This document shows, one piece after another, positions 39,817 to 49,491 of a DNA stretch of 64,000 nt; positions within the stretch are counted from its first letter, which is position 1, and each line of letters begins with the position of its first letter. The notes under the pieces were generated by a model. The model was not told where the DNA came from, made no database searches, and saw nothing but the letters and a program-made list of their open reading frames with translations. This DNA is from an uncultured bacterium. Its GTDB lineage: Bacteria > Elusimicrobiota > Elusimicrobia > Elusimicrobiales > Elusimicrobiaceae. The translations under genes were made by a program, and so were the position numbers. The DNA is taken from NCBI GenBank assembly GCA_949294095.1, contig CASFFZ010000010.1, positions 1-64,000 on the forward strand, in the 5' to 3' direction.

Positions 39817-40422
39817 TTATTCCGCCGGAACAGGAGGCTCAGGCAAGGCCGGGCCGCCTGCATGCGGGGCTCTTCCTTCAGGGCCGGGGCCTCTGCGCGG
39901 GCCGGCTTTGGGGCCGGGCATACGCCGCGGGGCGGGGCCGCCGAATAAAACGTCCAAATCACCTTCTTCGGCAATGACGGCGTTGGTCTTTTCTTCCACC
40001 CAGGCTTTTATGTTTTTATCGGATTTTTCTTCATCCAAGTCTTTTTTCATCCGTTCCAACCGTTCCTGGAATTTGGCGAGTTGTTCTTCTTTAAACTTAA
40101 TTTGTTCCTCGCGGATAGACTTTACCATCTTGGCAATTTCTTCTTTTTTGGCGTCTTTCTTTTTGCCCGCTTTGAGCTTGTTGTATTCCTGCACCAACGT
40201 TTCCATTTTTTCTTCGGTGGCTCTCATTTGGGCTTTGTGTTCCCGGCGGGCTTTTCTAAATTCTTCCGCACGGGCGTCTTTCTTATCTTGTTTTGCCTTT
40301 ACCGCTTCGGCGCGCGGGCCTTTGGGCATCGGGCAGTCGTCCCCTTTGCATTTGCGCGGGCCTTCGGCAAAAGCCGGAGCGCACAGCGCCGCCAAGAGAA
40401 CAGCAATCATTATTTTCTTCAT
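39817..40422 (-). CDS. Charged periplasmic helical protein, Spy/CpxP-like in plan
   Basis: 201 residues. Signal peptide MKKIMIAVLLAALCAPAFA, then EGPRKCKGDDCP with two cysteines that could form a disulfide. A long Lys/Glu/Arg-rich helical middle (about 45-155) follows, then a Pro/Gly/Arg-rich tail (about 170-201). The plan recalls Spy, CpxP or zinc-resistance sensor proteins, which are small helical periplasmic proteins tied to envelope stress, but I cannot find the LTxxQ signature. It is the third gene of the ECF sigma / anti-sigma operon, which supports a sensing or effector role. Confidence 0.72.
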   Translation of the reverse strand: MKKIMIAVLLAALCAPAFAEGPRKCKGDDCPMPKGPRAEAVKAKQDKKDARAEEFRKARREHKAQMRATEEKMETLVQEYNKLKAGKKKDAKKEEIAKMVKSIREEQIKFKEEQLAKFQERLERMKKDLDEEKSDKNIKAWVEEKTNAVIAEEGDLDVLFGGPAPRRMPGPKAGPRRGPGPEGRAPHAGGPALPEPPVPAE

Positions 40423-40437
40423 AACCCCTCCTCATGT

Positions 40438-40839
40438 TTAGAATTCCTGTTCAAACAAATCCAAATCGTTTGAAAAACTCAGGTATTCGTCGTCCAAATT
40501 TTCGCTCATATACGCAATTACTTCCGAAGCGTCAAAAGCGGTTTTGTCCGGATACAGGCCGGCCAGCAGCATAAAAATGCCCGCTCCCAACAGCGCAGTG
40601 CCTGCCAACGCCGGTTTCCACCCGGCAAAAAAGGATTTTCGGCGCGTTGTTTTGGAAAACAACTCTTCCACCACCGCCGCGGGAGCCGCCGGCGCGGCCA
40701 GCGCCTCTTCCGTGCGGCGCAGCAACGCCAGTTCCGCCCGGCACGCCGCACACGTTTGCAAATGCTGCTCAAACGCGGCCTTGTTTTGCGCCTCCAATTC
40801 TCCCGATGCATACAGCATCAAATTTTCACAGTCCTTCAT
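40438..40839 (-). CDS. Zinc-finger anti-sigma factor
   Basis: 133 residues. Residues 1-40 hold the ZAS motif (FEQHLQTCAACRAELALL, His-x3-Cys-x2-Cys). A membrane helix lies at about 78-97 (ALAGTALLGAGIFMLLAGLYP), and a short acidic periplasmic tail follows. It would hold the ECF sigma factor at the inner membrane until a signal releases it. Its ATG overlaps the sigma stop (ATGA), the usual sigma/anti-sigma coupling. Confidence 0.88.
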   Translation of the reverse strand: MKDCENLMLYASGELEAQNKAAFEQHLQTCAACRAELALLRRTEEALAAPAAPAAVVEELFSKTTRRKSFFAGWKPALAGTALLGAGIFMLLAGLYPDKTAFDASEVIAYMSENLDDEYLSFSNDLDLFEQEF

Positions 40840-41438
40840 AAGGTTACCTCGCGTGCGGCGGGTTGTTCTTCCGCCAAAATGCGCTGCATTTTTTTAACGG
40901 CCCGGTGGCAATCGGCCAGCACGGTGCCCAGCGGCCTGTCCAACAACTGCGCAATTTCTTTAAAAGACATATACTGCCGCAAGTACAGCATTTCGCGCTG
41001 GCGGGCCGGCAGTTCCAGCGAAGCGCGGCGGATTTCTTCTTCCGTTTCGCGTCCGGTCAGTTCTTCGAGCAACGAAGGCTGTCCGTCCGGCAGGGTATCG
41101 TGCAAAAATGCATTGCCTTCTTCATCCGTTTGATCCAGAGAAGCCAGTTTGTCTCTGTCCCGAAAAAAATTTAACACCCGGTTGCGGGCCGTTAAAAACA
41201 GCCACGATTTAAATTTTCCTCTCGGTTCGTATTTATCCGCGTGTTTAAAAAGAGAGATAAATACTTCCTGGAACAAATCCCCGGCCGCGCCTTCATCCTG
41301 TACCATCGCCATAATGTACTGATAGAGCGAATTTTTATAGCGGTACACCAATTCTTCAAATGCGTCCGACGATCCGGATTTAAAGAGCAGGACGAGTTCG
41401 TCGTCCGTTCTTTCATTTAATTTTGGATCCATATTCAT
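40836..41438 (-). CDS. ECF-type RNA polymerase sigma factor
   Basis: 200 residues. Region 2: AFEELVYRYKNSLYQYIMAMVQDEGAAGDLFQEVFISLFKHADKY and FKSWLFLTARNRVLNFFRD. Region 4: LPARQREMLYLRQYMSFKEIAQLLDRPLGTVLADCHRAVKKMQ, a full helix-turn-helix. A second ATG lies two codons in (41432); either may be used. It leads the operon sigma / anti-sigma / periplasmic protein and so probably autoregulates it. Target genes unknown. Confidence 0.93.
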   Translation of the reverse strand: MNMDPKLNERTDDELVLLFKSGSSDAFEELVYRYKNSLYQYIMAMVQDEGAAGDLFQEVFISLFKHADKYEPRGKFKSWLFLTARNRVLNFFRDRDKLASLDQTDEEGNAFLHDTLPDGQPSLLEELTGRETEEEIRRASLELPARQREMLYLRQYMSFKEIAQLLDRPLGTVLADCHRAVKKMQRILAEEQPAAREVTL

Positions 41439-41535: not shown

Positions 41536-41565
41536 TTTACATCTTTTTTAAAAAACTGATATAAT
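41536..41565 (+). promoter_or_regulatory. Strong sigma-70-like promoter
   Basis: TTTACA (41536-41541), 18-base spacer, TATAAT (41560-41565). Predicted start near 41572. The run GTTTTACATCTTTTTT here resembles the -35 region of the D12 methylase promoter. Confidence 0.65.
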
Positions 41566-41597
41566 AATTCCTGTTGTTTTTAAAAAGGTTTTAAAAA

Positions 41598-41711
41598 ATG
41601 CAATATAACTCTCACTGCTTAAAGCATAACATCCGCCGTTCCATGCTAAATATGACCATTAGCATGGTATCCGTGTTTATGCATGCAGAAGCGGGGAGAG
41701 TTTGTAGATGA
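41598..41711 (+). CDS. Possible 37-residue small protein
   Basis: ATG 41598 to TGA 41709-41711. AAAAGG lies about ten bases upstream, a weak ribosome-binding site. The peptide is MQYNSHCLKHNIRRSML followed by a mildly hydrophobic Met-rich stretch and ends VCR. It has six methionines in 37 residues (16%). The only support is its position inside a well-bounded transcript; it may be chance. Confidence 0.25.
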   Translation: MQYNSHCLKHNIRRSMLNMTISMVSVFMHAEAGRVCR

Positions 41712-41741
41712 TGTAATGTAAGATTTTGGTTGTATCTATAT

Positions 41742-41773
41742 AAACCCGCCCTTTAGAAAGAGCGGGTTTTTTT
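41742..41773 (+). terminator. Terminator before the MFS fusion gene
   Basis: AAACCCGC (41742-41749 region) pairs with GCGGGTTT (41762-41769), with inner CTTT/AAAG pairs and a T-run. Confidence 0.8.
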
Positions 41774-41804: not shown

Positions 41805-44597
41805 ATGAAACAAGTCATTGCGTCGCTCGTCAGTATCAGCATCCTTACGCTTGGCCCTTTGCCGGCGCCGGCCCAAGTACCGCAGAAAGCGCTGCAGGCG
41901 GTAAAGGCGGTTGCCAAATCCGGCGTTAAAAAAACAATTGTACCTCCGGTAAAACCCAACCTTTCCGTACCGGCCGTTTCTTTGCCAAAAGCGATGCTCG
42001 CTGCCGAAACCGAACGTTTTGCGGTGCCCCATGTTTCTATAGAATTAAAGCCCGAACAGCAACAGCAGTTGGAACGGGGGATTGCCGTAACGGTAAAAAA
42101 AGCGATGGATCCTTCTTCCTTAACCTTGGCGCAAATCCGCGCGCGGATTGCGCAAGGCAATACCGAACGGCTGGCCCAACGCATTGTAACGTATCCCAAC
42201 CCAAGCGTACGGGAGGGGATGCTTCGCAATGAATTTGTGCAAGTGGCGCTGGCCGGCCACGCCACTTCGGAGCAAATAGAGCAAGCGGCCGATTTTTGGC
42301 GCCAGGACATTCAGCGGGCCATAGACGAATTGCCTAGTCTTCCCGCGGGAGATTTGCCCGCGCTGGCTCAAGCCTATGCGCAAAAAAATAAATCCGTCCG
42401 GGCGGTTTCCGACGCTTTAGCCAGCACGGCCGCTTTAGGGTTGTTTGGCACCCAAGAAGACGCCGCCTTACTGGCAGATTTTTCCAAACAGGCTTCGTCC
42501 ACTTCTTTGGCGCCGCTCGTGCAAACTGCCGCCGCCCGCGCCCTGCTGCGCCTGGGCGCTTTTGACGCGCTCCGGCAGGCAGCCCAGACCGCGGCAGATC
42601 CCGATTTGTGGAAAGGGATTTCCGTCCACACGGCCAAACAAGGTTTTTCTCTGTCCATACCCGCTGGCGCTTCCCTCCCGGCCAACGCCCAAGCCTTTAC
42701 GGACGTTTTAGCCGTTTACGGAAAAATCAACCTCTTGGCGGCGGATCCGTCGGCCGAGGCAACGGCTGTCTATATGAACTTAGGGCGCGCCCGCCCCACA
42801 GCGGCCAGATCGGCACAAAATAATCAACCCGCCCCGCTGGCGTACCTGCCGCACTTGCCGCTCGTACAAACAGCCGCCCCGGCCGATATACAGGCAGAAG
42901 CGTTCTCCGTCCCGTCGCAAGCCGCCGCGGCGGTTTCCAGCCCCACCGGATTTTTAGCACAAGCGGCACGCACCGCTCGGGCGGCAAAACCTCATAGCGC
43001 ATCCCCGCGCTCCGTACGCTTTTTTGCCCGCACGCCCCAAGATGCCGCTTCTGACCGGGCCGGCATACTCTATAGCGGGTTCCCGCTTCCGGCGGTGGCG
43101 GCCGGCTTAAAAAAAGCCTGGTCGTACCTTAAAAAACGCTTCACACCCGCTCCCGCCGCCTTGCGCCCGGAACCGACGATCGCCCAAGGGGGATTAACAG
43201 GCGTTTTTCAGCGGGCCAGCCTTTATTTGGCGTCGTTTGTGATGGGGCTTGAAGTGGCCACCCCGGTGATTGCCAACTTCGGCAGCAGTTTCGGGCTTTC
43301 GTTAAGCGACAACATTTTAGTAGCCGTGGCCACTTATTTGCCGTACTCGCTGGGGGCCTTCTTATCCAATTGGCTGAAGCAAAAAATCGGCCGCAAAGCT
43401 TCTATGAATTTAGGACTTGCGTTGATGGGAGGGGGGTTTACCGCCGGCGTAACATTGTTTGGGCTGAACGGCACTTTCGTGCCGCAGGCCGACGCGTTAT
43501 CCCACTTCTATAACATTTTGGGCTGCATTACCCTGGCCAGCACGGGCGGCGTGTTTGTGCACAATGCCGTCGGGCCGATGATGACGGATTTAAGCGCAGG
43601 CGCCAGCGAACTGGCCCTGCAAAAACGCAACGCCAATACGGAGCTGAGCCGGGCTTTGGGAATGGCGGCCTCGTTTGCGTTTCCGTTCCTTTCTACCAAA
43701 GTACTGGGGATGGACTGGAGCTTGACGTTTGCCCTGCCCATTCCGCTGGTGGCGGCGGCGGCCTTAGGCATTAATTTAGCCCGTATTCCCAACACAAAAC
43801 CCGTGGTGGAAGCCAAGCCGCAGCCCCTGCCGGCCCAAGCCGCGGCCCAAGGCATTAAAAGCAGGCGGGCTTATACGCTGACGTCTTCGCTTTTAAATAA
43901 CGGATATATCCGCTTATTAAAAGAGGAAAAAGGCGTGTTGGCGCTTTTAACCGGACTGCTGACGATGAACGCGGTGGAAATGTCGTTTAACAACGGGTTT
44001 CTGTTTCTGCTTCCGGGGCTGACAACGGATCCTTCTTCCCAATACTTATTTGGATTAGTCCAATTTGCCGCGCCGTTTTTAATCGGGCGGTATCTGGCCC
44101 GAGGGTTTTTAAAATGGTTTCCGAAACGCAATATGAGCGTAGCCACCTTGGGGGCGGCGCTGGGCGGGCTGGCGGCCCTGCCGGTGGCAGACAATGTGTA
44201 CGCGCTGACGGCGGCTTTGTTTGCGGCCGAGGTGGGCATTTCCACCACCTTCACGCTGGCGTTTGCCCGCTCCGCCAAGAACATCCGCACGCAAGACCGT
44301 ATCGTGTCGCTGATTGTAGCCAGTGCGGTTTCCTGCGCGTTTGGCCCCATGCTGCTGACGAACTTGGCGGAAATGTTTATGAGCACCGGCCTGTTTGGAT
44401 CGGCCGGCGCCACCGCGGCTGCGATGATTGGCGTGCCGTCCGCCCTGGCGTTACTCTCAGCCGGTCTTTTTAAACGGGTGGAACGCGTGCAGGCCGCGCC
44501 GGAAAATGCTTTGAACACTGATCCGCAGAAAAACCCGCAACAACGCTTAAGCTGGCTCAAAAAACTGCTTAGCCGCATCAGCGGCAAACGCCCCTGA
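41805..44597 (+). CDS. Secreted N-terminal domain fused to an MFS-like transporter
   Basis: 930 residues. A signal-like segment (MKQVIASLVSISILTLGPLPAPAQ) leads into about 400 mostly helical Ala/Gln-rich residues with HEAT-like stretches (TLAQIRARIAQGNTERLAQRIV; ALLADFSKQASS). After about residue 460 comes an MFS-type membrane domain of about 12 helices: VMGLEVATPVIANFG, YLPYSLGAFLSNWLKQKIGRKASMNLGLALMGGG (loop 2-3 motif with GRK), and GASELALQKRNANTELSRALGMAASFAFPF. The large soluble domain in front of an MFS core is unusual and would be periplasmic. AGAGGAAAC lies upstream. Substrate unknown. Single gene with a terminator. Confidence 0.78.
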   Translation: MKQVIASLVSISILTLGPLPAPAQVPQKALQAVKAVAKSGVKKTIVPPVKPNLSVPAVSLPKAMLAAETERFAVPHVSIELKPEQQQQLERGIAVTVKKAMDPSSLTLAQIRARIAQGNTERLAQRIVTYPNPSVREGMLRNEFVQVALAGHATSEQIEQAADFWRQDIQRAIDELPSLPAGDLPALAQAYAQKNKSVRAVSDALASTAALGLFGTQEDAALLADFSKQASSTSLAPLVQTAAARALLRLGAFDALRQAAQTAADPDLWKGISVHTAKQGFSLSIPAGASLPANAQAFTDVLAVYGKINLLAADPSAEATAVYMNLGRARPTAARSAQNNQPAPLAYLPHLPLVQTAAPADIQAEAFSVPSQAAAAVSSPTGFLAQAARTARAAKPHSASPRSVRFFARTPQDAASDRAGILYSGFPLPAVAAGLKKAWSYLKKRFTPAPAALRPEPTIAQGGLTGVFQRASLYLASFVMGLEVATPVIANFGSSFGLSLSDNILVAVATYLPYSLGAFLSNWLKQKIGRKASMNLGLALMGGGFTAGVTLFGLNGTFVPQADALSHFYNILGCITLASTGGVFVHNAVGPMMTDLSAGASELALQKRNANTELSRALGMAASFAFPFLSTKVLGMDWSLTFALPIPLVAAAALGINLARIPNTKPVVEAKPQPLPAQAAAQGIKSRRAYTLTSSLLNNGYIRLLKEEKGVLALLTGLLTMNAVEMSFNNGFLFLLPGLTTDPSSQYLFGLVQFAAPFLIGRYLARGFLKWFPKRNMSVATLGAALGGLAALPVADNVYALTAALFAAEVGISTTFTLAFARSAKNIRTQDRIVSLIVASAVSCAFGPMLLTNLAEMFMSTGLFGSAGATAAAMIGVPSALALLSAGLFKRVERVQAAPENALNTDPQKNPQQRLSWLKKLLSRISGKRP

Positions 44598-44687: not shown

Positions 44688-45914
44688 TTATTCGTAGCGC
44701 AGCGCGTCAATGGGTGTTAATTTAGACGCCTTATACGCCGGATAAAACCCGAAGAAAATACCCGTTGCCGCCGAAAACCCAACCGACAGCAAAATGGCCG
44801 ACAGGCTCAGCTCGGCCGGAATGGTGGAATGCGCCGCCACCAACAGCGTGATAATCACCCCTAGAATAATCCCTATCAGCCCGCCGATACAGGAGAGGGT
44901 AACCGATTCCACCAAAAACTGCAGGCGGATATCCCAGCTGGTAGCGCCGATGGCCATACGGATGCCGATTTCACGCGTGCGTTCGGTTACGGACACCAAC
45001 ATAATGTTCATCACTCCGATACCGCCCACAATCAGCGATACCGCCCCAATGGCGCCCAACAGAAGGCTCATCGTTTTGCCCATGGTTTTGGCCTGCTCAA
45101 TAAACGAGGCAAAGTCGTCCAGCTGGAAATCGTCCTTCCCCAGCGGATGAATGCGGTGGGTGTTGCGAACGGCATTTTGAATGTCCACCTTAGTGTTTTC
45201 AATGGTATTAAAATCAGCCACTTTAATGACCACGCGGTCTAGGGCGCGGCGGTCGGACTTATTCCAGCCCGCGTTCATTTTTACTTTTCCGGTGGTATAG
45301 GGGATTAAGGCCCCTTCGTCCATATCAAACCCCATACCGCTCTGGCCGGTTTTTTTGATGACGCCCACCACTTTAAAAGGGATATTATCCAACACCACGG
45401 TTTTATTGAGCGGATCCACGTCGCTGAAAATCGTCTGCGCAGCGGACGCGCCCAATACAATCACCTGGGCGTAATCGTTCACTTCGCGCTGGGTAAATTT
45501 CCGGCCGCTTTCAATGGGCCAGTCGTAGGTTAAAAAGATATCCGGATCGGTTGCCAGCACGCTAAGCGCCACGCTGGTGTTGGAATACTTGACGTCAAAG
45601 CTGGTGGTAATATACGGGGCGGCCGCGGCCACGCCGTCGAGCTCGCGGATGGCGTAAACATCGTCCATCGTTACGTCTTTGGGGGAGGAAATGCTTTCAT
45701 CCAAATCCCACGGCTGGCGCAGAAACAAAATGTTGGTGCCAAAGCGGGCCACGCTGTCGGTAACGCTTTTTTGCGCGCCGGAACCGACCGCCAACATGGT
45801 AATAACCGCCGACACGCCGATTACAATACCCAAACTGGTTAAAGCGGCGCGCATTTTGTTGGCAAAAATGGCTTTGAGCGAAATTTTAAAAATAGCGTAA
45901 AAAGAATCCCACAT
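44688..45914 (-). CDS. MacB-type ABC transporter permease
   Basis: 408 residues from ATG 45914, preceded by GAGG at nine bases; an ATG at 45929 would overlap the ATPase gene more. One helix near the N-terminus (MRAALTSLGIVIGVSAVITMLAVGSG), a periplasmic MacB-PCD domain (about 45-270), then three helices from SLLLGAIGAVSLIVGGIGVMNIMLVSVTERTREIGIRMA onward. It couples ATP hydrolysis to extrusion through MacA and TolC. Here ATPase and permease are separate, unlike E. coli MacB. Last gene of the four-gene operon. Confidence 0.92.
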   Translation of the reverse strand: MWDSFYAIFKISLKAIFANKMRAALTSLGIVIGVSAVITMLAVGSGAQKSVTDSVARFGTNILFLRQPWDLDESISSPKDVTMDDVYAIRELDGVAAAAPYITTSFDVKYSNTSVALSVLATDPDIFLTYDWPIESGRKFTQREVNDYAQVIVLGASAAQTIFSDVDPLNKTVVLDNIPFKVVGVIKKTGQSGMGFDMDEGALIPYTTGKVKMNAGWNKSDRRALDRVVIKVADFNTIENTKVDIQNAVRNTHRIHPLGKDDFQLDDFASFIEQAKTMGKTMSLLLGAIGAVSLIVGGIGVMNIMLVSVTERTREIGIRMAIGATSWDIRLQFLVESVTLSCIGGLIGIILGVIITLLVAAHSTIPAELSLSAILLSVGFSAATGIFFGFYPAYKASKLTPIDALRYE

Positions 45915-45915
45915 A

Positions 45916-46599
45916 TTATTTAACCTCATCGCTTATTTTTTCGCCGTCTTTAAATTTAATGAGCCGCGACGCATATTCCGCAATGTCCGGCTCGTGCGTA
46001 ATCAGGATAATGGTTTTGCCCATTTCTTTATTTAACCGCGTGAATAAATCCATTACTTCAATACTCATTTTCGTATCCAAGTTGCCGGTCGGCTCGTCGG
46101 CAAAGATAATGGGCGCATCGCACACCAGCGAGCGGGCAATCGCCACGCGCTGCTGCTGGCCGCCCGAAAGCTGGTTGGGCAGGTGAAAAGCGCGCTTTTC
46201 AAGCCCGACGGCCGTCAGCGCCGCCATGGCTTTTTCCCGGCGCAAATGCGCGGGGGTGTGGTTGTAAATCATCGGCAGTTCCACATTTTCCACCGCCGTG
46301 GTGCGCTTAATGAGGTTAAACCCCTGAAACACAAATCCGATTTTGCGGTTGCGCACGCCCGCCAGTTCCGACAAATCCGTAGCCGTTACGTCAATGCCGT
46401 CCAAAATATATTTGCCCCGGGTGGGTTTATCCAGGCAGCCCAAAATGTTCATAAAAGTGGACTTGCCCGAACCGGAAGGCCCCATCACGGCCACGAATTC
46501 GCCTTTTTCAATAGACACGCTGACGCCGTTTAAAGCTTTTACTTCCACGTCGCCAAGCGTATAGATTTTGTACAAATCCCGCGTATCAATCAGCGCCAT
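45916..46599 (-). CDS. MacB/LolD-type ABC transporter ATPase
   Basis: 227 residues. Walker A MGPSGSGKST, Q loop FVFQGFNL, signature LSGGQQQRVAIARSL, Walker B IIFADEPTGNLD and the switch His in LITHEPD. MacB/LolD/FtsE class. It powers the permease encoded next. Stands 9 bases after the MacA-like gene. Confidence 0.94.
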   Translation of the reverse strand: MALIDTRDLYKIYTLGDVEVKALNGVSVSIEKGEFVAVMGPSGSGKSTFMNILGCLDKPTRGKYILDGIDVTATDLSELAGVRNRKIGFVFQGFNLIKRTTAVENVELPMIYNHTPAHLRREKAMAALTAVGLEKRAFHLPNQLSGGQQQRVAIARSLVCDAPIIFADEPTGNLDTKMSIEVMDLFTRLNKEMGKTIILITHEPDIAEYASRLIKFKDGEKISDEVK

Positions 46600-46608
46600 A
46601 GCCGCCTC

Positions 46609-47850
46609 CTAGCGCCGTCTGCCCGGCCGCGGCGGGCCCATTTGGGTGCTGGTGCTGGCTTGGAGGTTGTTTTCGCCCACAATTACCATATCGCCTTCCT
46701 GCACGTCCCCGCCGGTAATTTCCGTTTGTTTGGTGGCAATAATGCCAATCGTTACGTCCACCCGGTGGGGCTGCTGCATGCCCGGATCCATCTTCCACAC
46801 GCCGGTATTTTCGTACTTGTTGGCATTGGTGGAGGGGGAGAAGCGCAGCGCCTCGTTGGGTACCAGCAGGACGTCTTTTTTATCCTGCGTGCGGATGGTT
46901 AACGTGGCGGTCATGCCGGGTTTTAAGCGCAAATCCGCGTTATCCACGTCAATAATAACGGTATAGGTGGTGCTGCTGGAGGAGGTGGTGGTAGAGTCGG
47001 ACGTGTCCACATAATTCGTGCGGACTTGGCGCACCACCCCTTTAAATTTTTCGCCTACATAGCCGTCCAAGGTAAAATCGGCCTCCTGACCGGGCTGGAT
47101 TTTGACGATATCCGCCTCGGATACTTTGGCCTCCACCTGCATTTTGGTCAAATCCTGCGCCACGACAAAAAGCTCCGGCGTAGAAAATCCGGCCGTAATG
47201 GTTTGCCCTTCGCTTACTTTGCGGGTTAACACCACGCCGTCAATGGGGGAGACGATCTTGGTGTTGGACAAATCTTTTTCCGCCGTATCCAGGTTGGACT
47301 GCGCCTGCACCACGTTGGCCTGCGCCGAGTTTAAACTGCTTTTTGCATTCACATAAGCCAGCTCGTATTCTTCCAAATTGACTTTGGACACATAGTCTTT
47401 TTCATACAGGGCCTGGTAGCGTTCGTAGTTCTTTTTGGCCAGGCGGTAGGAAACGTCGGCCGAGGCCAAGCTTTCTTTGGCCGAAGAGAGGCGCGCCTTG
47501 GCTTCTTCCAGCGAAGCCAAAATTTGCGTTTGGTCAATAATGGCCATTAAGTCGCCTTTTTTGACTTCGGTGTTATAGTCCACATAAATTTTTAAAATTT
47601 CGCCGGAAACCAACGCGCCCACTTCCGTGGTGTTTACCGGATTAATCGGGCCGGAGGCTTCTACAATATCCACAATGTCGCCCCGTTTCACGCGCGCCAG
47701 CTTAAACTGCGGCACGGGCGGCGCCGAAAAAAAGGCCGCTTTCACGCCCCATGCCGCCGCCAACAGCAGCAGCACAATCAGCGTTTTTTTCCACCACGCC
47801 ATTTTCCAAAACCGTTTAAACATACGTTTAAATATATTTTCCTTTTTCAT
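46609..47850 (-). CDS. MacA-like periplasmic adaptor (HlyD/RND family)
   Basis: 413 residues. An N-terminal anchor helix (TLIVLLLLAAAWGVKAAFF) precedes the family domains. RVKRGDIVDIVEASGPINPV starts the lipoyl/beta-barrel part; a coiled-coil hairpin covers about 105-190 (ARLSSAKESLASADVSYRLAKKNYERY); VDGVVLTRKVSEGQTI-like text closes the lipoyl half. The C-terminus carries a Pro/Arg-rich tail. It bridges the MacB permease and the TolC-like channel. One base separates it from the TolC gene. Confidence 0.92.
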   Translation of the reverse strand: MKKENIFKRMFKRFWKMAWWKKTLIVLLLLAAAWGVKAAFFSAPPVPQFKLARVKRGDIVDIVEASGPINPVNTTEVGALVSGEILKIYVDYNTEVKKGDLMAIIDQTQILASLEEAKARLSSAKESLASADVSYRLAKKNYERYQALYEKDYVSKVNLEEYELAYVNAKSSLNSAQANVVQAQSNLDTAEKDLSNTKIVSPIDGVVLTRKVSEGQTITAGFSTPELFVVAQDLTKMQVEAKVSEADIVKIQPGQEADFTLDGYVGEKFKGVVRQVRTNYVDTSDSTTTSSSSTTYTVIIDVDNADLRLKPGMTATLTIRTQDKKDVLLVPNEALRFSPSTNANKYENTGVWKMDPGMQQPHRVDVTIGIIATKQTEITGGDVQEGDMVIVGENNLQASTSTQMGPPRPGRRR

Positions 47851-47851
47851 A

Positions 47852-49297
47852 TTAATTCGTCCCCATTGCTTGTTTCAAATCCGCCACGGCGGAAGCATAG
47901 TCATACCGCGCCGTCAATAAACTCAGTTCCGCATCCGTATAGGCCACTTCGGCGTCTTTGAGTTCAATAATATCTCCGATTCCCTCGTTATAGCGCCCGC
48001 GGGAAAGATCCAAATTTTCTTTGGCCTTTTCCACATTCAGCTCTGCAATCGGGATGCTTTCGGCCGCTTCCTGCATTTTGATATAGGCGCTTTGCACTTC
48101 CAAAAATACGTTGTTAAGCAAGCTGCGGCTGGTGTTGAGGGTGTTCTCCAACGAAATTTTAGCCTGCTTGACGCCGTTATACGTCTTAAGCGCATTAAAA
48201 ATCGGAATTTCTACCGAAGCCATCAGCCGGGCTTCTTCGTTATCCAGCGAAAAATCGTCCCCGTATTTGGAAAACCCCGCCGAAAAAGAGAACGTGGGGA
48301 AAAAGCCCGCTTTGGCCTGATTGAGCTTCAGCCGGCTGATGCGCACATCCGTATGCGCCGAAAGCACATCCGGGCGGTTGGCATAGGCGGTTTGAACGGC
48401 CTGGTCAAAGGGCATGTCAAATTTTTCAAACGTAAGAATTTCTTCTATCTCCAAGGTTTTGGGGGTGGTTACGCCCATGCTGTTGGCCAGCTCGGCCGAG
48501 GCCGTTTTGACCAAGTTCTTGGCGCGGATGAGGCTGAGTTCCTCGTTGTTTAAATTGACTTCCGCCGTCGTTACGTCCACTTTCGGGCGCAGCCCCAAGC
48601 GGTAATACTCGGCGGCGCGTTCGTACTGGTCTTGGTACAAATCGCGCGATTGGGTGCGAATGGCCACCGCGCGCACTGCCGAAATTAAGGCATAATAGTT
48701 TTTCTTAACGGTGCGGATCAAATCGTTTTTGACGCTGTCCACATTCAGTTCCGCCTGCTCCAGCGCCAGCTGCTGGGTTTTTACGTTGCGGGCAATATCC
48801 GTAATGCCGCTGATTGAAAGCTGGGCCTGGGCGTATACGTCCGACGAGCCGTGATCCGTGCGGGAGGAACCGTCCATTTTGCTGTTGGTATAATTCTGCG
48901 AGGCGCCCGCGGTAACCGTAGGCAAAAACTCGGATTTGGCCAGATTTAAATTGACGTGCGCATTCTGCAAATTAAGCTGCGCGCTGACGGCCTGCGGGCT
49001 GTTGGCCAGCGCAATGCGGATGCAGTCCTCCAGCGTCAGCTTGCCGTTGATATCCGGCAGCGGTTGGCCGTCTGCATCCCGCAGCACCATGGCCGGATTT
49101 TCGTTTTTGGCCGGGTGGACGGGTTTGGTGTCCGATTCCTGCCCCGCGCCGCCCGCGGGGGGAACCACCGCATCCTTTGCCGCTTGGGCCGCGGCGGAAG
49201 AGGGTTCGGCCGAAGGCGCAGGGGCAACCTCCTCGCTCCAGGAGCAGAGGGCGGTGCAAAGAAAAACGGTACTTAGAAAAAGTTTAAAATGTTTCAT
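47852..49297 (-). CDS. TolC-family outer-membrane efflux channel
   Basis: 481 residues from ATG 49297 (the longer frame lacks a signal peptide at its end). Signal peptide MKHFKLFLSTVFLCTALCSWS, then an Ala/Pro-rich stretch to about 75. Two OEP repeats of long helices follow (LTLEDCIRIALANSPQAVSAQLNLQNA; RYNEGIGDIIELKDAEVAYTDAEL). TATAAT lies six bases before the ATG on minus, so the message may have almost no leader. First gene of the efflux operon. Confidence 0.92.
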   Translation of the reverse strand: MKHFKLFLSTVFLCTALCSWSEEVAPAPSAEPSSAAAQAAKDAVVPPAGGAGQESDTKPVHPAKNENPAMVLRDADGQPLPDINGKLTLEDCIRIALANSPQAVSAQLNLQNAHVNLNLAKSEFLPTVTAGASQNYTNSKMDGSSRTDHGSSDVYAQAQLSISGITDIARNVKTQQLALEQAELNVDSVKNDLIRTVKKNYYALISAVRAVAIRTQSRDLYQDQYERAAEYYRLGLRPKVDVTTAEVNLNNEELSLIRAKNLVKTASAELANSMGVTTPKTLEIEEILTFEKFDMPFDQAVQTAYANRPDVLSAHTDVRISRLKLNQAKAGFFPTFSFSAGFSKYGDDFSLDNEEARLMASVEIPIFNALKTYNGVKQAKISLENTLNTSRSLLNNVFLEVQSAYIKMQEAAESIPIAELNVEKAKENLDLSRGRYNEGIGDIIELKDAEVAYTDAELSLLTARYDYASAVADLKQAMGTN

Positions 49298-49491
49298 AGA
49301 GATATTATATAAATTTGTTATGTTTTTCAGACGAAAGTGCACGGCGTTTGCGCCGCGCCGCCTTTATTTAAACACAAAACCTGCCCCAATTATTGCATTC
49401 GGCGGCTCCCACATACAACCGGCCCTTCCCAACCGCCGCTTGCAACGGCCGCAGCAAGGGCCCGAAAAGAGCGAAGAAACAAAAAGAATTA

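What the first reader, a model, noticed from the sequence alone, without database searches (positions are those of the whole stretch)
41805..44597. MFS-like transporter with a 400-residue secreted helical domain in front
MFS proteins rarely carry such a large N-terminal extracytoplasmic part behind a signal-like sequence. The soluble part is Ala/Gln-rich and HEAT-like. It might be a built-in substrate receptor or an envelope tether.
Basis: partly seen in the sequence, partly recalled or inferred. Interest (0 to 1): 0.52.

Follow-up and report, generated by a model that had tools for sequence, protein, structure and literature searches.

The report
Drug-pump-like transporter with helical front domain
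A gut bacterium makes a pump-like membrane transporter fused behind a signal sequence and a helical scaffold domain, apparently switched on through a tiny leader peptide, and its built-in sorting signals disagree about which side of the membrane the front domain is on.

Summary
The ORF is real (930 aa, 41805-44597 +): a Sec-type signal peptide (1-23), an ARM/HEAT-like helical domain (about 100-328; AF2 pLDDT 89 alone), a ~135-residue low-confidence linker, and a true 12-TM MFS (PF07690, E 5e-12). So the "400-residue domain" is about 230 folded residues plus linker. The fusion is genus-wide (Elusimicrobiota, UBA1436-like) and syntenic; one genome (G030) has an in-frame stop between the halves. 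Three paralogues in the same genome carry the same front module on other backs.

(1) Topology conflict: the front says "exported", but MFS loop charges (573 K/R in inside-type loops, 14 in outside-type, 16 sequences) put its N-terminus in the cytoplasm, and no convincing crossing lies between in 15 of 15 orthologues; giant relatives have one in 7 of 7. (2) The gene follows a conserved leader: a translated 35-39-codon uORF plus terminator and antiterminator-like stem, as in ribosome-mediated attenuation of pumps such as mef(E). Best reading: a proton-coupled exporter induced by translation stress, with a tethered solenoid outside. The receptor/tether idea is untested. Substrate, side of the domain and induction need experiments.

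The parts
41536..41565 (+). sigma-70-like promoter (TTTACA, 18 nt, TATAAT) of the leader
   Evidence: consensus scan, 11 of 12 matches; TATAAT in 8 of 9 aligned sequences, TACAAT in the other
41598..41711 (+). leader peptide ORF, 37 codons + stop (upstream ORF)
   Evidence: ORF of 35-39 codons in 19 of 21 orthologues; no in-frame stop in 12 close sequences, while every one of 500 column shuffles has one in at least one sequence; 14 of 14 gaps are multiples of 3 versus 9 of 25 just downstream
41700..41708 (+). right arm of the long leader stem; alternative partner of 41737-41745 (antiterminator-like)
41737..41745 (+). antiterminator-like right arm, overlapping the terminator's 5' arm
   Evidence: stem present in 9 of 9 sequences with at most two mismatched pairs, but almost no covariation
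41742..41773 (+). intrinsic terminator between leader ORF and start codon
   Evidence: 15 of 21 orthologues by script
41805..44597 (+). fusion gene, 930 aa
41805..41873 (+). Sec-type signal peptide, residues 1-23, site APA|Q
   Evidence: identical in the closest relative
41874..41939 (+). cationic, acid-poor stretch after the signal peptide, residues 24-45
   Evidence: net charge +2.9 in 20 residues in 48 family members versus +0.7 in 62 other signal-peptide-like proteins
42102..42788 (+). helical ARM/HEAT-like solenoid, residues 100-328
42789..43199 (+). variable low-complexity linker, residues 329-465
   Evidence: pLDDT below 50; length-variable; dN/dS 0.49 for 331-465
43059..43139 (+). motif AGILYSGFP plus basic amphipathic helix, residues 419-445
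   Evidence: motif in 11 of 16 MFS-type and 18 of 42 family proteins
43200..44594 (+). 12-TM MFS half, TMs between 471 and 889, motif-A-like GRK loop between TM2 and TM3
   Evidence: E483, E725, E809 invariant in 16 sequences
39817..41438 (-). conserved divergent neighbours: Spy/Metal_resist-like, zf-HC2 anti-sigma-like, ECF sigma factor
44688..49342 (-). conserved convergent neighbours: MacB-type permease, ABC ATPase, HlyD, TolC-like

Best explanation
A lineage-specific MFS exporter. Shown: one polypeptide made of a signal peptide, an ARM/HEAT-like helical domain, a long variable linker and a 12-TM MFS; conserved synteny; a conserved leader with a translated 35-39-codon uORF and a terminator just before the gene. 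Inferred: (a) the MFS is proton-coupled and exports a small amphipathic or drug-like compound; (b) a ribosome slowed in the uORF (by a ribosome-binding drug or other translation stress) lets 41700-41708 pair with 41737-41745, which breaks the terminator and turns the gene on; (c) the front domain is exported by the Sec signal and stays tethered by the linker as a binding or scaffold module on the outer face of the inner membrane. Step (c) needs a membrane crossing that the sequence does not show, so it is the weakest step.
For: MFS; invariant acidic residues in TM1 (E483), TM7 (E725) and TM10 (E809) in 16 of 16 sequences, read as coupling residues by analogy (established knowledge of MFS antiporters, not tested). 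Solenoid. Signal peptide: AQ cleavage-like site in 32 of 42 family proteins, and 32 of 42 have a Pro within seven residues before such a site; a paralogue family of 921-989 aa (5 members looked at) has the signal but no convincing TM segment behind it, so the module is probably exported there. Leader: coding test, structure with 8 of 42 pairs changed on both sides; covariance model finds it at the same place in 10 loci not used to build it, E 2e-33 to 7e-6, and in the window's genome only this gene stands out (next match E 0.002). Precedents: mef(E), an MFS macrolide pump under leader-peptide transcription attenuation (PMC4335068, passages read), and bmrCD/BmrB (PMC4191407, abstract read). Neighbourhood of a MacAB-TolC-type pump and an ECF sigma/anti-sigma/Spy-like set in nearly all of 15 loci.
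Against: MFS loop charges put TM1's N-side in the cytoplasm (573 K/R in even loops, 14 in odd loops, 16 sequences) and no segment between residue 30 and TM1 looks like a constant crossing (best predicted dG 1.9-3.9, usually in a solenoid helix, in 15 of 15), against an exported front domain. The residues after the signal peptide are unusually positive. Leader pN/pS is only 0.61 (0.81 in the other frames), the antiterminator has little covariation, and I recognise no known stalling motif in the leader peptide. 2 of 21 orthologues (L090, L070) lack the uORF and have no leader match. There is no substrate evidence at all.
Confidence: 0.4

Rival explanations
1. The front domain is cytoplasmic. The signal-like segment is kept as an uncleaved N-out/C-in anchor, with the cationic stretch after it holding the chain inside; the MFS then has its usual topology and the solenoid is a cytosolic regulator.
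For: Positive-inside pattern of the MFS and lack of a convincing crossing; net charge +2.9 versus +0.7 after the hydrophobic segment, with few acidic residues; giant relatives that do have a crossing at about 540 (dG -0.3 to 1.0 in 7 of 7) resolve the same conflict.
Against: Short h-region, Pro in the c-region and conserved A|Q site are typical of cleaved signal peptides (established knowledge); the N-tail MKK is positive; paralogues without further TMs share it.
Confidence: 0.28
2. The precursor is cut: the module is exported and released, and the MFS inserts on its own. The AGILYSGFP motif and linker would be the processing zone.
For: The module also occurs in front of a protein without further TMs; in G030 an in-frame TAA separates the two halves; two giant relatives carry trypsin-like peptidase domains.
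Against: No protease or cut site identified for this protein; the motif is absent in 4 of the 15 MFS-type sequences that have a front part; the fusion is kept in every other complete copy.
Confidence: 0.17
3. Built-in substrate receptor: the solenoid binds the substrate and hands it to the MFS.
For: Solenoids bind ligands and peptides (established knowledge); the domain is fused to a transporter.
Against: Same module on non-transporter backs; long poorly predicted linker; the module evolves much faster than the MFS.
Confidence: 0.1
4. The leader is only a terminator or a small RNA of its own, not a uORF-controlled attenuator.
For: The region has its own promoter-like site and terminator; covariation is modest.
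Against: Frame-preserving gaps, no stops, conserved start and stop; it directly precedes the RBS in 18 of 20 MFS-type loci scanned.
Confidence: 0.2

Closest known systems
MFS_1 transporters (PF07690)
   Same: 12 TMs, motif-A-like loop, fold matches to SPNS2, FLVCR1, NorA/NorC, OCT/OAT
   Different: signal peptide plus about 440 residues in front; no sequence match to any solved chain
mef(E)/mel macrolide pump with leader Mef(E)L (PMC4335068)
   Same: MFS gene after a leader peptide and an intrinsic terminator; transcription attenuation
   Different: leader of 8 codons there, 35-39 here, with no sequence likeness seen; drug and stalling untested here
bmrB-bmrCD (PMC4191407)
   Same: translated leader ORF with alternative stem-loops before a drug pump
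   Different: ABC pump, Bacillus
Armadillo/HEAT-repeat proteins
   Same: helical solenoid, VIA Z 7-9
   Different: no significant sequence or Foldseek match
Giant signal-peptide proteins of Elusimicrobiaceae (L123, L170, L171 and others, found here)
   Same: signal peptide, large helical-looking front; in L123 two MFS-like regions, one of which matches the window's MFS (E 2e-17)
   Different: open frames of 1300-5600 residues; a TM at about 540; front not demonstrably homologous

Membership tests
Major facilitator superfamily | significant match to a family profile | tested here: met
   PF07690 45.7 bits over cut-off 33.4
Major facilitator superfamily | 12 TM segments, two six-helix halves, cytoplasmic N- and C-termini | tested here: inconclusive
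   12 TMs and charge pattern met; the N-terminal side conflicts with the signal peptide
Major facilitator superfamily | transport activity | not testable with these tools
   needs an assay
Sec-exported protein | cleavable signal peptide | tested here: inconclusive
   sequence features met, cleavage not shown; unusual positive mature end
ARM/HEAT-repeat domain | profile match to repeat families | tested here: not met
   no match at the curated cut-off in 15 members; one weak HEAT_2 hit, E 0.27
ARM/HEAT-repeat domain | solenoid fold | tested here: inconclusive
   VIA Z 7-9, in the range the tool warns about; Foldseek E 0.86
Leader-peptide (ribosome-mediated) attenuator | translated leader ORF | tested here: met
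   frame-preserving evolution; translation itself not measured
Leader-peptide (ribosome-mediated) attenuator | terminator with mutually exclusive antiterminator | tested here: inconclusive
   both stems present; switching not shown
Leader-peptide (ribosome-mediated) attenuator | induction by stalling | not testable with these tools
   needs a reporter assay

The most novel reading that the evidence does not exclude
This is the compact member of a family, peculiar to Elusimicrobiaceae, of signal-peptide-led membrane polyproteins in which an exchangeable helical front cassette is swapped and homogenised by recombination between genes with different transporter or enzyme backs, and in which a Sec-exported front and a normally oriented MFS coexist in one chain through an undescribed topology or by processing.
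Probability: 0.25. Interest if true: 0.8.

Novelty: new variant of a known kind. Interest (0 to 1): 0.55.

Why it matters
MFS topology is textbook; a genus-wide family whose targeting signal and positive-inside pattern disagree gives a clean natural test of how topology is decided. The gene-specific leader peptide offers a cheap way to find the inducer, and hence perhaps the substrate, of an exporter from an almost uncultured gut phylum. The shared, recombining front cassette points to an undescribed family of very large envelope proteins.

Tried and rejected
Separate genes or mis-called start: rejected, one frame throughout; the other complete copies in the genus are fused, the rest are cut by contig ends apart from G030 and the weak match G031. 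Homology of the window's front module with the giants' front: not established (hhalign E 0.28 with A4; with A3 only the signal peptide aligned). The ART-like look of the C-end of L123 was by eye only; Pfam finds nothing there. Rfam match for the leader: none at gathering, chance-level hits only. Search of viral contigs with A4: not possible. PDB by sequence: none convincing. The VIA list for the front domain does not exclude other folds. Literature: searches gave listings only, with no paper seen on this protein; nothing found there does not mean nothing printed. The script's terminator finder missed L079, L089, L092 and L136, whose terminators I saw by eye.

Full report
OBSERVATION. The ORF at 41805..44597 (+) codes for 930 aa. 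Pfam finds one family, MFS_1, at 477-848, E 5.4e-12, 45.7 bits over a cut-off of 33.4; NCBIfam and PDB sequences give nothing useful. A hydropathy scan gives a hydrophobic segment at 4-22 and twelve in 471-889. AF2 on the whole protein (16 sequences) has a confident helical block at about 103-328, low confidence at 329-516 and moderate confidence over part of the MFS; overall pTM is only 0.36. Residues 80-330 alone give pLDDT 89, pTM 0.84, all-helical. The best structural neighbours of that part are armadillo/HEAT-type and designed repeat solenoids at Z 7-9, a level that the tool warns may mean only a common arrangement, and Foldseek itself finds nothing significant.

SPREAD OF THE FUSION. In the window's own genome (1.48 Mb) the front module occurs four times: here, and in three other large ORFs of 1265, 1456 and about 963 aa. 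The 1265-aa one also ends in an MFS (PF07690, 33.7 bits, barely over the cut-off) after an extra middle part; the 1456-aa one has several TM segments but no convincing Pfam match; the 963-aa one has no TM beyond the signal peptide. With a single front sequence, 20 of 61 related genomes match, all in the genus; with a profile, 62 of 294 genomes of the phylum match, 57 of them in the genus and 5 elsewhere with marginal E-values of 1e-5 to 6e-4; many of the weaker matches cover only the signal peptide or the linker motif. The GTDB records include UBA1436. The MFS part matches in 35 of 149 genomes of the order: 31 in the genus, 4 elsewhere in the family. Of these 4, G091, G092 and G099 match inside large frames (2748, 1334 and 3667 aa), and G111 is a short match with stops. 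In the genus the MFS part lies in complete frames of about 790-1000 aa or in frames cut by contig ends; the exceptions are G030, where the two halves are in one frame but separated by a TAA, and G031, a weak match (24%) in an 859-aa frame. Between the window and its closest relative (G065) dN/dS is 0.38 in the solenoid, 0.49 in the linker and 0.08 in the MFS, and the signal peptide is identical.

NEIGHBOURHOOD. In the 15 loci the same genes flank it in most: ECF sigma factor, zf-HC2 protein and a Spy/Metal_resist-like protein upstream on the other strand (14 of 15; L088's contig starts inside the gene), and a MacB-type permease and ATPase, with HlyD and TolC-like proteins where the contig reaches, downstream on the other strand (14 of 15; not seen in the 2.8 kb that L089 has there). 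The fusion gene stands alone on its strand.

TOPOLOGY CONFLICT. Counting K+R in the loops defined by the window's TMs over 16 aligned sequences gives 573 in even (inside-type) loops and 14 in odd ones. This is the usual MFS orientation with the N-terminus inside. A signal peptide followed directly by this MFS would need one crossing in between. I computed apparent insertion energies with a published scale whose parameters I recalled: the best segment between residue 30 and TM1 lies at 1.9-3.9 in 15 of 15 sequences with a front part, usually in a solenoid helix; the MFS TMs lie between -0.6 and 4.1. The overlap with the weakest MFS helices means that the scale alone does not exclude a poor crossing, but the segment is not at a constant place. 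The most hydrophobic linker segment, around AGILYSGFPLPAVAAGL, is comparable in the window (3.3) but worse in relatives (4.2-5.9 where the motif is kept), and the motif is missing in 5 of 16, one of these being a fragment. In giant relatives a clear TM follows the front domain at about 520-560 (dG -0.3 to 1.0) in 7 of 7, so there the same logic works. Against this, the N-terminal segment looks like a normal signal peptide, and a paralogue family without further TMs carries it too. The stretch after it is unusual: net +2.9 over 20 residues in 48 family members versus +0.7 in 62 other signal-peptide-like proteins, p 1e-9, with the caveat that members of both sets are related and that the 62 include some integral membrane proteins.

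LEADER. Upstream lies a promoter-like site, a structured leader of about 200 nt (z -3.7) and an intrinsic terminator that ends about 30 nt before the start codon (the scan did not list it, the fold and one search do). The leader holds an ORF of 35-39 codons in 19 of 21 orthologues. In 12 close sequences there is no in-frame stop, while in every one of 500 column shuffles at least one sequence has one; all 14 gaps within the ORF columns (9 aligned sequences) are multiples of three, against 9 of 25 just downstream; pN/pS is 0.61 against 0.81 in the two other frames. The RNA consensus has 42 pairs, 8 with a double change. A covariance model built on 9 sequences finds the leader at the same place in 18 of the 20 MFS-type loci scanned, 10 of them not in the model (E 2e-33 to 7e-6), and not in L090 or L070. 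In the window's genome the next match after the true one is E 0.002. The right arm of the long stem can instead pair with the segment that begins the terminator. This is the layout of ribosome-mediated transcription attenuation, known for the MFS macrolide pump gene mef(E) (PMC4335068, passages) and for bmrCD (PMC4191407, abstract). That the inducer is a ribosome-binding drug is inference. Terminators of another sequence precede 7 paralogues, mostly of the longer type, and an unrelated one precedes L074, together 8 of 31 paralogues scanned.

SHARED FRONT CASSETTE. In several genomes contigs end inside genes of this family. In five genomes two such contig ends are identical for exactly 141, 141, 141, 99 or 55 bases and then diverge (13 same-genome pairs compared among 28 ends in 17 genomes; the other 8 pairs share 0-1 bases). 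Such lengths are typical of assembler word sizes (recalled), so these are probably exact repeats shared by paralogues. One pair is the window gene's orthologue in G036 with a longer paralogue, sharing the end of the linker. In the single-contig genome G091 three giant genes share 2994-3095 bp at 100% identity with different signal peptides and C-parts. In the window's own genome the front modules of the three paralogues are only 27-34% identical to this one, so no such homogenisation is seen there.

VERDICT. A genuine, conserved, lineage-specific MFS fusion, best read as an inducible exporter with a tethered solenoid. What is shown is anatomy, conservation, a leader that evolves as a coding sequence, and the topology conflict; what is inferred is the direction and substrate of transport, the inducer and the side of the domain.

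Noticed in passing
41536-41773: Conserved leader with a 35-39-codon ORF, long stem and terminator upstream of the fusion gene; no Rfam family at gathering score.
   Followed up: yes
L123:4795-13017, L170:1370-8968, L171:1756-13659 (genome G091): Three giant ORFs (2533-3968 aa frames) share about 3 kb at 100% DNA identity with different signal peptides and C-parts; L123 has two MFS-like regions, L171 has trypsin-like peptidase matches (PF13365) in its last third.
   Followed up: partly
L174 (genome G096): A 5570-aa open frame that runs off the contig, weakly matching the giants' front part.
   Followed up: no
L131/L159, L157/L158, L178/L179, L181/L182, L150/L151: Pairs of contig ends in one genome share exactly 141, 99, 141, 141 and 55 bases inside genes of this family: probably exact repeats between paralogues that broke the assemblies.
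   Followed up: partly
upstream of the paralogues in L045, L051, L052, L053, L055, L063, L077: A different terminator-like hairpin (AGGGCCAAAAG...CTTTTGGCCCT) sits before longer paralogues, so attenuation may be common in the family.
   Followed up: partly
L070, near 3888 (genome G030): In-frame TAA between front module and MFS in an otherwise intact orthologue: decay, split gene or sequencing error not distinguished.
   Followed up: partly
39817-41438: ECF sigma factor, zf-HC2 anti-sigma-like protein and Spy/Metal_resist-like protein on the minus strand, syntenic across the genus, next to a MacAB-TolC-type set.
   Followed up: partly
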